Part shown: in pieces, positions 9,448-64,000 of the stretch | How positions within the stretch are numbered: position 1 is the stretch's first letter | Layout: every line of letters begins with the position of its first letter | From: Phocaeicola sartorii JCM 17136 = DSM 21941 | Lineage (GTDB): Bacteria > Bacteroidota > Bacteroidia > Bacteroidales > Bacteroidaceae | DNA: 64,000 nt | Direction: 5' to 3' | Assembly: GCF_000614185.1 (NCBI RefSeq) | Contig: NZ_BAKM01000017.1 | Location: 1-64,000, forward strand | Notes under the pieces: model-generated | What the model saw: the letters and a program-made list of their open reading frames with translations, nothing else | Database searches by the model: none | What the model was told of the DNA's origin: nothing | Made by a program: the position numbers and the translations under genes

Positions 9448-11477
9448 ATGCAACAGGAAGATGACCTCCGGGGACTGGCGAAAGTCATGGAATTCATGCG
9501 CGCCATCTCCATAATATTCTTAGTGATACACGTTTACTGGTACTGCTATCAGGCTATAACCGACCTCGGCGTGAACATCGGTGTCGTTGACCGCATACTG
9601 CTGAACTTCCAGCGGACTGCGGGACTTTTCAAGAATCTACTATTGACCAAGATGTTCGCACTGATATTCCTCGCCCTGTCATGCCTCGGCACCAAGGGAG
9701 TCAAGAACCGGAAGATGACATGGGAGAAAATTTACGGAGCCTACATATCGGGACTCGTGCTTTTCTTCATGAACTGGTGGATGCTTTCCTTGCCGCTGTC
9801 GCCTATGGTGAATGCGGCGTTATACACCGTCACACTCACGGCCGGATATATACTGCTGCTCATGGCCGGAATCTGGACGAGCCGCATGTTCCGTCACAAC
9901 CTTATGGAAGATGTCTTCAACACGGCCAACGAGAGCTTCATGCAGGAAACCCGTCTCATGGAGAACGAGTATTCGGTGAACCTGCCGACCAGGTTCGTGT
10001 ACCAGGGACGGGAGTGGGACGGATGGATAAACGTGGTTAACCCGTTCCGTGCATCGATAGTCCTGGGCACGCCGGGTTCCGGAAAGAGCTACGCGGTGGT
10101 GAACAACTATATCAGGCAGCAGATCTCCAAAGGGTTCGCGATGTACCTGTATGATTACAAGTTCGATGACCTCTCAATTATCGCCTATAACGAGCTGCTG
10201 AAAAATCTCGACAAGTACAAGGTAAAGCCTGAGTTCTATGTGATAAATTTCGATGACCCGCGTCGCTCGCATAGATGCAATCCTATCAACCCACGGTTCA
10301 TGGCGGATATCAGCGACGCATACGAATCGGCATACACCATACTCCTGAATTTGAACAAGACATGGATACAGAAACAGGGAGATTTCTTCGTTGAGTCGCC
10401 GATTATCCTGCTCGCCGCTATAATATGGTACCTCCGCATATACAAGGAGGGGCGCTACTGCACCTTCCCCCATGCCATCGAGTTCCTGAACAAGCCTTAT
10501 GCCGACATATTCACCATCCTAACCTCCTATCCGTCCCTTGAGAACTACCTGTCACCCTTCATGGACGCATGGAAAGGTGGTGCCCAGGACCAGCTCCAAG
10601 GCAGATAGCTTCTGCTAAGATACCTCTTTCGAGAATGATCTCACCCCAGCTGTACTGGGTCATGACGGGAGATGATTTCACGCTCGACCTTAACAACCCG
10701 AAGGCTCCCAAAATACTGTGCGTGGGCAACAATCCGGACAGGCAAAACATATATTCGGCAGCACTCGGACTTTACAACAGCCGCATAGTCAAACTTATAA
10801 ACAAGAAAGGACAACTCAAAAGTTCCATCATCATTGACGAACTCCCTACCATATATTTTCGCGGCATCGACAACCTCATAGCCACGGCGCGCTCCAACAA
10901 GGTGGCGGTGTGTCTCGGCTTCCAGGACTTCTCCCAGCTTGCGCGCGACTACGGCGACAAGGAGGCGAAGGTCATACAGAACACTGTCGGCAACATATTC
11001 AGCGGACAGGTCGTAGGCGAGACGGCAAAGAACCTGTCGGAACGCTTCGGAAAAATACTCCAGCAGCGCCAGTCGGTATCCATCAATCGGCATGACACTT
11101 CCACTTCGATAAACACCCAGCTCGATTTCCTCATTCCCGCATCCAAGATAGCAAATCTGTCGCAGGGCACGTTCGTCGGCAGCGTTGCCGACAACTTCGG
11201 CGAGGAGATAGACCAGAAGATCTTTCACTCGCGCATCATCGTTGACAGCGCAAAAGTGACGGCAGAGACAAAAGCCTACAAGAAAATACCTGTAATCAAT
11301 GATTTTCTGGACGAGGATGGCAACGACATCATGCAGGAACAGATTGAAAGGAACTATTCTCAGATAAAGAATGATGTAGAGCAGATAATCGTCGACGAGA
11401 TGGAACGCATCAAGAACGACCCGGAATTACAGCATCTGCTCCCATCGGAGGATAACGGAGAGGACGGGGAGAAATAA
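9448..11477 (+). pseudogene. mobC: MobC, TraG/VirD4-type coupling protein, broken by one missing base
   Basis: Type IV coupling protein that links the relaxosome to the secretion channel. The N-terminal part has several membrane spans (residues about 17-35, 70-85, 102-150) and Walker A GTPGSGKSY near residue 210. The frame ends at 10608 (AQDQLQGR then stop). The downstream frame continues exactly with QIASAKIPLSR, ISPQLYWVMTGDDF and Walker B SSIIIDELPT. One extra G in the GG at 10600-10601 restores a protein of about 676 residues. Either a real -1 frameshift or a sequencing error; the pattern elsewhere in the window favours error. Confidence 0.88.
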
Positions 11478-11507
11478 AGCCGGTGTCTATTCTATCCGCA
11501 AAGGTAG

Positions 11508-11624
11508 CCACACACCTTTCGGACGGATGCAAGGCCGGGCCCTGCGGGTTTCGTGGAAAAATCTTCCGCGCCCTGCGGGGCTTGCGGTATTTTTCCCGAA
11601 AGCCTTGCACTGTCCGGCGTGTGG
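11508..11624 (+). promoter_or_regulatory. Long structured hairpin, leader copy 2
   Basis: CCACACAC..GGAC..GCAAGGC pairs with GCCTTGC..GTCC..GTGTGG. An inner GTGGAAAAAT pairs with TATTTTTCCC. The tip is longer than in the other copies (GCGCCCTGCGGGGC). It is followed by GTGGCTGTCATGGCGGCAAG, as in copy 1, and an AT-rich leader to the 11699 gene. On the minus strand TACCTTTG (11506-11499) lies just outside. Confidence 0.6.
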
Positions 11625-11698
11625 CTGTCATGGCGGCAAGAATAGGACACAGGCTGCTGTGTCCGATAAGAATTTATAATAAATTAAATAGAAGATAT

Positions 11699-61768: not shown

Positions 61769-62236
61769 TTAATGTATTAAAGCGGAGGCTTCCAATACCC
61801 CCCATACCAATAAGGCGTAGCGGAGTATCTTTCCGATGGTCATGGCGAGAATGACAATCCATATATTGGCACGCATCATGCCCAATACAATGGATATGGC
61901 ACTTCCCAAAATAGGGATAAAGGCAAAGAAGGCCATCCAGGCACCCCGTCCGTGTACAAACCGCTCCGCACGATCCATCTTCTCTTTTTTTACATGAAAA
62001 TATTTCTCGATCCATTCCATATTGCCCAGATGTCCCATCCAGTAGCAGGTCATGCCTCCGGCAACATTGCCGGCGGTGGCGGCGGCTATACTGATCACCG
62101 GGTCCAGACCCAGCGGACCGACACAAGCTGCCAATACGGCCTCCGAACTGAACGGGAGGACACTTCCGGCTATAAATGAGCCCAAGAAAAGGCCCCAGTA
62201 TCCCCAGTCAATCAGGAATTGAAGAATTGCATCCAT
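61769..62236 (-). CDS. YqaA/DedA-family membrane protein
   Basis: A 155-residue protein with about four membrane helices: WGYWGLFLGSFIAGSVLPFSSE at the start, TAGNVAGGMTCYWMGHLG (conserved Gly-rich region), GRGAWMAFFAFIPILGSAISI and IWIVILAMTIGKILRYALL. It belongs to the SNARE-associated/DedA superfamily, small YqaA branch, linked to membrane lipid transport and stress tolerance. It overlaps the DUF6427 gene by 25 bases and is followed by mnmD. Confidence 0.87.
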   Translation of the reverse strand: MDAILQFLIDWGYWGLFLGSFIAGSVLPFSSEAVLAACVGPLGLDPVISIAAATAGNVAGGMTCYWMGHLGNMEWIEKYFHVKKEKMDRAERFVHGRGAWMAFFAFIPILGSAISIVLGMMRANIWIVILAMTIGKILRYALLVWGVLEASALIH

Positions 62237-63146
62237 AAATTGTATATAGTTAGAACTATTAATAGAACAAATGTAATGATGAAAAAGATGCCGGTAAAGC
62301 GGTTGTGGGTTAAAGTAAATAAATGCCCTGTTAAAATAGATCCTGCAATGATCTGCATCTGTAGCAGGAGGTCGAAATGTTGTGGCTGCAAGATACCCAG
62401 TAAATAAATCCAGGCTTCAACGGTAATCAGGAAAAAAAGGAATATACGTGTGCGTACCTTATCCAGATAAGATACATGAAAATAATGCACGCTGCTGACC
62501 AGCGATATCAGGGTGATGATTCCGCAGGATATGATTCTGTCCTGTCCCAATGACTCATAACTGATGGACTGAAAATGAATAAGTTCCTGTAAAGGGTGAT
62601 AAAAGAGATTCATTTTGTCGTAATAGAACGCATAGCCGAAAAAGAGCCAGTAGGCACACAGAGTCCTATAAGCCCGGCAAAGAAGCTTTTGAGTGACAGG
62701 GATCTGAAACTGATCATTCCCAAATAGAACAGCGGCACAAAATAAAGCAGCTGTGGAAACAGCAAGCTTCCCAGACCGATGAAAAAGAAAGCATGGAATA
62801 TGCTTCCTGCCGGATGGGGGGATTCGTAGCTGCTGAATAATTGGAAAATAGCGGCCAGAAAGGCGAGCGGCACAAAAACGGCATACTGGAAGGAATGCAG
62901 AAACAGGCAGGCTGTGGACAGGATTACGTAAAAGCTGACATGCAAGGTACTGCGTGTCCGTATCAGCGTGAAGGCGGTGTTTATCTCGATCAGCAGGTAA
63001 GCTGTCAAGGCACAGACCAGTAAGTTGATTGCATCCTGCCATTCGTTGCCGGTGATGATCCGGAGAAACAGGCATATAAGGATGGCAGCAGGGAAGGTGA
63101 ATCTTCCCTTTGCCATATCTGTCTGGAATTTGTCATAGCCTGCCAT
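62212..63146 (-). pseudogene. DUF6427-like membrane protein, broken by one missing base
   Basis: About 311 residues when repaired, with around eight to nine hydrophobic helices. The first frame runs from MAGYDKFQTDMAKGRF to GLIGLCVPTGSF and stops at 62610. With a C added near 62652 it continues VPYWLFFGYAFYYDKM and ends LLIVLTIYNLWMQFF. Predicted polytopic membrane protein typical of the Bacteroidales purD neighbourhood. Starts 18 bases after the purD stop. Confidence 0.75.
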
Positions 63147-63163
63147 GGTTGATAGTCCGCTGA

Positions 63164-64000
63164 TTACAGGTCGAATCCAATATCAGAACGGAAATATTTC
63201 TTGTCGAAATTGATTTTCTTCGCATTGGCGAATGATTGTGCCAAGGCTTCTTCTTTATTGGCGCCGTAGGAGCTGACTGCAATGACACGTCCGCCGCTAG
63301 TGACTACCTGACCGTCTTTCAGTGCTGTTCCTGCATGGAATACAATGCTGTTTTCAATCTCTTCTACTCCGCTGATGGCAAATCCCTTGTCGTAATGTTC
63401 CGGATATCCGCCGGATACCAGCATGACGCATACTGCCGAACGGGGGTCTATCTCTAAGACTTTTTCATCCAGATTGCCTGCTGCCACTCCTTCAAGCAGT
63501 TCCACCAGGTCACTCTTGATGCGTAGCATGACACTTTCCGTTTCCGGGTCGCCCATGCGTACATTGTATTCAATGACCATCGGTTCGCCCTTTACATTAA
63601 TCAGGCCGAAGAAGATAAAGCTTTATAGTCGATGCCTTCTGCCGCCAGTCCTTCCACGGTGGGGCGGATGATACGTTCTTCCACTTTTTTCATCCATGCT
63701 TTGTCGGCAAACGGAACAGGAGAAACACTGCCCATACCACCGGTGTTCAACCCTTTGTCGCCTTCGCCGATGCGTTTGTAGTCTTTTGCTTCGGGCAGAA
63801 TCTTGTAGTTCTTTCCATCGGTCAGAACGAATACGGAACATTCTATACCGCTCAGGAATTCTTCAATCACTACGGTGGCGGAAGCATCACCGAACATTCC
63901 GCTCAGCATTTCTTTCAATTCTTTCTTGGCTTCTTCCAAGGTGGGAAGAATCAGTACGCCTTTTCCGGCGCAAAGACCGTCGGCTTTCAGTACGTATGGA
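63164..64000 (-). pseudogene. purD: Phosphoribosylamine-glycine ligase, C-terminal two-thirds, broken by one missing base
   Basis: PurD joins phosphoribosylamine and glycine in purine synthesis. The ATP-grasp part reads VLKADGLCAGKGV at the window edge, then VVIEEFLSGIECSVF, GLNTGGMGSVSP and, after a break at about 63621, GFIFFGLINVKGEP and NVRMGDPETE. The first frame ends in DYKALSSSA; one G restores the conserved YKGFIFFGL. PurD is a housekeeping enzyme, so a real null allele is unlikely. First gene of the operon to DUF6427, yqaA and mnmD; its start lies beyond the window. Confidence 0.92.

What the first reader, a model, noticed from the sequence alone, without database searches (positions are those of the whole stretch)
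9448..64000. Thirteen frame breaks, eleven of them single missing bases in short runs
The broken genes are mobC (10600), DUF3945 (16650), topB (18215), blaI-1 (29130), AraC (32975), VOC (35907), blaR1 (37107, net +1), rteB (43718), the surface protein (58424; 60087 net +1), mnmD (61129), DUF6427 (62652) and purD (63621). Each rejoins to the expected family sequence by adding one base, mostly G or C next to the same base. Housekeeping genes are hit as often as ICE genes. This is the signature of homopolymer error, not pseudogene decay. Any annotation taken from this sequence will split these genes wrongly.
Basis: partly seen in the sequence, partly recalled or inferred. Interest (0 to 1): 0.75.

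Follow-up and report, generated by a model that had tools for sequence, protein, structure and literature searches.

The report
Genome-wide sequencing errors mimic broken genes
The broken genes in this stretch of a gut bacterium's genome are almost certainly sequencing errors in the assembly, since the same kind of break turns up in other parts of the genome, including genes a cell cannot live without; they are an ordinary artefact, not biology.

Summary
They are not local. Against a relative at about 92% DNA identity, 37 of 151 orthologues that passed filters, on 7 contigs, are broken: 47 breaks in 208.8 kb, one per 4.4 kb; the reverse comparison gives 7 of 158. The rate outside the window's contig predicts 10.8 breaks in the 54.6-kb span against 13 reported. 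Four of seven core-enzyme loci, valS among them, are split or shortened here and full-length in two relatives. Broken genes show no nonsense change in 21,293 codons and unchanged third-position bias after the break. So: consensus indel error, not decay. 'Homopolymer error' is half right: of 59 single-base deletions 35 lie in runs of 2-3, 23 in no run, 1 in a run of 4 or more. That resembles published Ion Torrent high-frequency indels (PMC3623719) more than long-homopolymer miscounting; the platform is unknown. Low interest; useful annotation warning.

The parts
9448..11477 (+). mobC/TraG-like coupling protein in two frames (9448-10608 and 10569-11477); net -1; intact relatives of 676-677 aa exist
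15638..17463 (+). DUF4099/DUF3945 protein in two frames (15638-16654, 16684-17463); net -1
17837..19932 (+). topB (Toprim piece 17837-18367, topoisomerase piece 18280-19932); net -1
28951..29351 (+). blaI-1 (penicillinase-repressor-like) in two frames; net -1; described only
32709..33508 (+). AraC-type regulator in two frames (DUF6597 N-part, HTH_18 C-part); net -1
35637..36079 (+). VOC/glyoxalase-like protein in two frames; net -1; second piece only weakly matched
36613..37969 (+). blaR1-like M56 sensor with TonB C-terminal domain in two frames; net +1; first piece unmatched; described only
43444..44759 (+). rteB-like sigma-54 response regulator in two frames; net -1
   Evidence: intact relative named
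57968..60793 (+). DUF4988 surface-type protein in three pieces (net -1, then net +1); intact 1002-aa relatives in G011 and G046; first break at the junction of a 97%-identical N-part and a 27%-identical remainder
61085..61767 (-). mnmD-like methyltransferase; last 15 residues in another frame; net -1
63167..64000 (-). purD (runs on to contig position 64431) in two frames; net -1

Best explanation
The 13 frame breaks are a sample of a genome-wide population of single-base consensus errors in this assembly, on the order of 1,000 coding frame breaks in 5.29 Mb (extrapolated). Shown: breaks occur at a similar rate on the other contigs that could be compared, in ordinary and core genes, and most are single-base deletions. 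Inferred: they arose when the sequencing platform systematically dropped a base, mainly C or G in runs of two or three, and the consensus kept the error. The profile resembles the strand-asymmetric high-frequency indels described for Ion Torrent PGM; the platform itself was not observed.
For: 37 of 151 orthologues broken, 47 breaks in 208.8 kb on 7 contigs, against 7 of 158 in reverse (18 contigs were sampled, 7 held orthologues that passed). The rate outside the window's contig predicts 10.8 breaks in the span, 13 reported, P(>=13)=0.29. Of seven core-enzyme loci, valS is split over two frames and three others have much shorter open frames (437 and 465 against 945 aa; 627 against 899; 979 against 1279), while G011 and G046 are full length (valS, gyrA and ileS named, the rest by inference). 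59 single-base deletions and 16 insertions, against 22 indels of 3n length and 6 others. Zero nonsense changes in 21,293 codons of broken genes; third codon positions hold 75% of changes before and 76% after the break. Quality figures fit split marker genes: 91.68% complete, 5.48% contamination. Spectrum: 37 of 59 deletions are C/G, 29 of those 37 in runs of 2-3; PMC3623719 (passages) reports 82% of strand-asymmetric high-frequency indels in homopolymers of two to three, dominated by C and G deletions.
Against: No reads were available. G011's frames are intact by construction of the test, so independence rests on the reverse comparison, on G046 (for window genes, small) and. Broken genes have a higher share of nonsynonymous codon changes than unbroken ones (median 0.222 against 0.151, p=0.008; pooled p=1e-12), so a few may be truly relaxed, or misalignment beside indels inflates it. 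The reverse comparison gives 7 breaks, a background of true, reference-side or artefactual breaks that could account for perhaps two of the 13. For the platform: a Listeria study that counted only runs of three or more found Ion Torrent single-base indels at mean run length 5.5, mostly adenine (PMC12046094, passages), unlike this spectrum. The G046-G011 control is small (8 genes, 10.5 kb, 0 breaks each way). One G011 row shows two stops inside its match.
Confidence: 0.94

Rival explanations
1. Genuine pseudogene decay: these genes, or the ICE alone, are being lost in this strain.
For: Some reverse-direction breaks exist (7 of 158), and broken genes show a higher nonsynonymous share. The surface-protein breaks lie in a divergent gene.
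Against: Similar rate outside the ICE and on other contigs; core enzymes hit; no nonsense substitutions and unchanged third-position bias after breaks.
Confidence: 0.03
2. A genuine hypermutator strain (for example mismatch-repair-deficient) with real frameshifts.
For: Single-base indels dominate (59 deletions, 16 insertions).
Against: From general knowledge, repair-deficient strains shift long runs most; here runs of 4 or more hold 1 deletion in 3,301 runs. valS and a dnaE-type gene could hardly be lost.
Confidence: 0.01
3. Programmed or widespread ribosomal frameshifting makes the split genes functional.
For: Core genes are split yet the organism lived.
Against: Relatives carry these genes in one frame; no motif was found beyond a GGC/GCC enrichment (14 of 24 C/G deletions in runs of 2-3 against 26-28% background; significant for runs of 2 only); both -1 and +1 occur.
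Confidence: 0.005
4. Error, as in the best explanation, but of another platform: low-depth PacBio, nanopore or 454 and not Ion Torrent.
For: PMC4053816 (passages) reports PacBio RS deletions rising at high GC; PMC8812927 (passages) says long-read-only assemblies hold mostly homopolymer indels; PMC12046094 (passages) finds a different Ion Torrent profile.
Against: Contigs as short as 501 bases among 160 look like a short-read assembly; long runs are spared, unlike nanopore or 454 length miscounts.
Confidence: 0.45

Closest known systems
Ion Torrent PGM high-frequency indel errors (PMC3623719; passages read)
   Same: Single-base events; deletions of C and G prominent; runs of two to three (82% of the strand-asymmetric class there; 29 of 37 C/G deletions here).
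   Different: Rate there 1 in 1,000-2,000 bp against the reference, here about one coding break per 4.4 kb of consensus; strand asymmetry cannot be tested; the A/T insertion bias is not seen (8 of 16).
Residual homopolymer indels of long-read-only bacterial assemblies (PMC8812927; passages read)
   Same: Single-base indels that split genes in annotation.
   Different: Long runs are spared here and contigs are many, some very short.
Ion Torrent frameshifts in Listeria typing (PMC12046094; passages read)
   Same: Assemblies with frameshifted genes, deletions in the majority.
   Different: There, among runs of three or more, long A runs are most affected (mean 5.5); here short C/G runs.

Membership tests
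Assembly consensus indel error | Breaks spread over the assembly at a similar rate | tested here: met
   7 of 7 contigs with passing orthologues affected (18 sampled); 35 breaks in 177.1 kb outside C144
Assembly consensus indel error | Core, hardly dispensable genes affected | tested here: met
   4 of 7 loci of PF00133, PF00521 and PF07733 split or shortened
Assembly consensus indel error | Reads of the strain carry the unbroken frame | not testable with these tools
   no reads held
Classic homopolymer-length error (454, nanopore) | Error rate rises with run length, worst in long runs | tested here: not met
   1 deletion in 3,301 runs of 4 or more, 14 expected at the C/G 3-run rate; 4 insertions there
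Ion Torrent high-frequency indels | C/G single-base deletions in runs of 2-3 | tested here: met
   37 of 59 deletions C/G, 29 of 37 in runs of 2-3
Ion Torrent high-frequency indels | A/T insertions favoured | tested here: inconclusive
   8 of 16 insertions are A/T
Ion Torrent high-frequency indels | Strand asymmetry among reads | not testable with these tools
   no reads held
Pseudogene decay | Nonsense changes and relaxed selection in broken genes | tested here: not met
   0 nonsense in 21,293 codons; third-position share 75% before and 76% after the break; against this, the nonsynonymous share is higher in broken genes

The most novel reading that the evidence does not exclude
One or two of the 13 breaks are real, most likely in the divergent surface protein, where the first break sits at the junction of a conserved N-part and a divergent remainder relative to both G011 and G046; that could be an on/off or recombination-linked variation of a surface protein hidden among the errors.
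Probability: 0.1. Interest if true: 0.3.

Novelty: not a real feature. Interest (0 to 1): 0.12.

Why it matters
Gene loss, pseudogene counts, resistance-regulator status and mobility predictions taken from this assembly would be wrong: 37 of 151 orthologues tested are split. It also suggests that lowered completeness with raised 'contamination' can come from split markers, and that short C/G runs, not only long homopolymers, are worth screening.

Tried and rejected
Near-identical copies of the ICE were sought, to count indels without evolutionary noise: of 61 genomes of the genus (own included) 30 matched the mobC region, but the longest matches outside the window's own copy were 76-77% identical, and higher identities were confined to shorter pieces (79% over about 1 kb, up to 90% over 31 bases). 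So the ICE was compared only at protein level. In one search the script flagged tandem paralogues at 5599-6307 as a break; they are two genes and are not counted. A motif reading of the deletions (GGC/GCC) was not made a mechanism: 24 events, significant for runs of 2 (10 of 15) and not for runs of 3 (4 of 9). tRNA and Rfam scans of the window found nothing. A paper search for a PacBio C/G-deletion profile held none with 5 of 6 terms; of the 12 papers listed only PMC8812927 was opened.

Rows dropped. The orthologue comparison kept genes whose best segment was at least 85% identical, pieces colinear, coverage at least 95%. Recounted for the first three G011 blocks: of 833 open frames 411 had any match, 280 fell below 85%, 6 failed coverage, 0 colinearity, 125 kept. 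mnmD and the surface protein were among those not kept, so the count leaves out three of the window's own breaks. Of 37 broken genes 20 were sent for naming and 10 matched an NCBIfam model at E 1e-30.

Full report
What was checked. The window is contig C144:1-64000 of a 5.29-Mb, 160-contig assembly rated 91.68% complete and 5.48% contaminated; contig lengths seen run from 501 (C1) to 277,735 bases (C160). The five best named relatives of its purD piece are Bacteroides and Phocaeicola records (best 80 of 580 kept). The nearest relative used, G011, is one contig of 5,163,189 bases; that length matches my recollection of B. vulgatus ATCC 8482, which no call confirms.

The 13 breaks are real features of the sequence. 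Nine were seen by aligning intact proteins of relatives: mobC, the DUF3945 protein, topB, rteB, purD and the gene called DUF6427, mnmD and both surface-protein breaks. blaI-1 is split: each piece matches part of the intact paralogue at 36245-36610. AraC, VOC and blaR1 rest on profile matches of separate pieces, blaR1 least securely. Eleven are net -1 and two net +1.

They are not local. With G011's open reading frames as queries, 37 of the 151 orthologues that passed filters are broken in this assembly: 47 breaks in 208.8 kb, one per 4.4 kb. With this assembly's frames as queries, 7 of 158 are broken in G011, one per 27 kb. G046 against G011 gave 0 breaks in 8 genes each way; G046 against this assembly gave 4 breaks in 9 genes (all). 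G011's frames are open by construction, so the reverse comparison and G046 are the controls; the G046 control is small. Eighteen contigs were sampled, 1.14 Mb; the 151 orthologues lie on 7 of them, and 7 of 7 are affected. The contig carries further breaks beyond the window. Extrapolation with 89% coding gives about 1,060 coding breaks.

Core genes. A valine--tRNA ligase gene (named from its G046 orthologue) is split over two frames on C129. Of the other six loci matching PF00133, PF00521 and PF07733, three have open frames far shorter than in G011 and G046 and three are full length: 4 of 7 affected. One G011 row shows two stops inside its match. A living cell could hardly lack these enzymes, so most such breaks are unlikely to be in the DNA. 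Other broken genes include a RodA- and a RicT-type gene and a CDF transporter; 20 of the 37 were sent for naming and 10 matched a model.

No decay. In broken genes there were 0 nonsense changes in 21,293 codons (2 in 48,147 codons of unbroken genes), and third positions hold 75% of changes before and 76% after the break. Against this, the median nonsynonymous share is 0.222 in broken and 0.151 in unbroken genes (p=0.008) (all).

Which kind of error. Of 75 single-base indels, 59 are deletions. Thirty-seven are of C/G, 29 of those in runs of 2-3; 23 of 59 are in no run; runs of 4 or more hold 1 deletion in 3,301 runs where 14 would be expected at the C/G 3-run rate, and 4 insertions. Gap placement at about 92% identity is uncertain, so some no-run cases may be misplaced. 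Nanopore- or 454-type length miscounting is therefore a poor fit. PMC3623719 (passages) describes Ion Torrent high-frequency indels as only 29% in homopolymers, with the strand-asymmetric class 82% in runs of two to three and dominated by C and G deletions; it is the closest published profile among the four papers looked into. PMC12046094 (passages), counting only runs of three or more, reports Ion Torrent indels in long A runs, which does not fit, and PMC4053816 (passages) leaves PacBio possible. The platform stays open.

Verdict. One or two breaks could be real, the surface protein being the likeliest.

Noticed in passing
57968-60793: Surface-type protein: first 155 residues 97% identical to G011 and G046, remainder about 24-28%; the first break falls at this junction.
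   Followed up: partly
28951-37969: Intact class A beta-lactamase at 30021-30911 (over the general class A cut-off, below that of subclass A2) lies between two blaI-type repressors; behind the second follows an M56 sensor with a TonB C-terminal domain.
   Followed up: no
28048-28836: PRTRC-system ThiF-family protein inside the ICE.
   Followed up: no
L232-L233 (G046): In G046 mobC-like conjugation genes also lie about 14-19 kb from purD, which may point to a shared insertion neighbourhood.
   Followed up: no
L095-L097 (contig C144, 64-115 kb): Further frame breaks in genes beyond the window, near contig positions 64.7, 67.1, 67.9, 74.9, 75.4, 104.7, 108.7 and 111-113 kb.
   Followed up: yes
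genome sample (124 orthologues): C/G deletions in runs of 2-3 lie in GGC/GCC context in 14 of 24 cases against 26-28% background; significant for runs of 2 only.
   Followed up: partly
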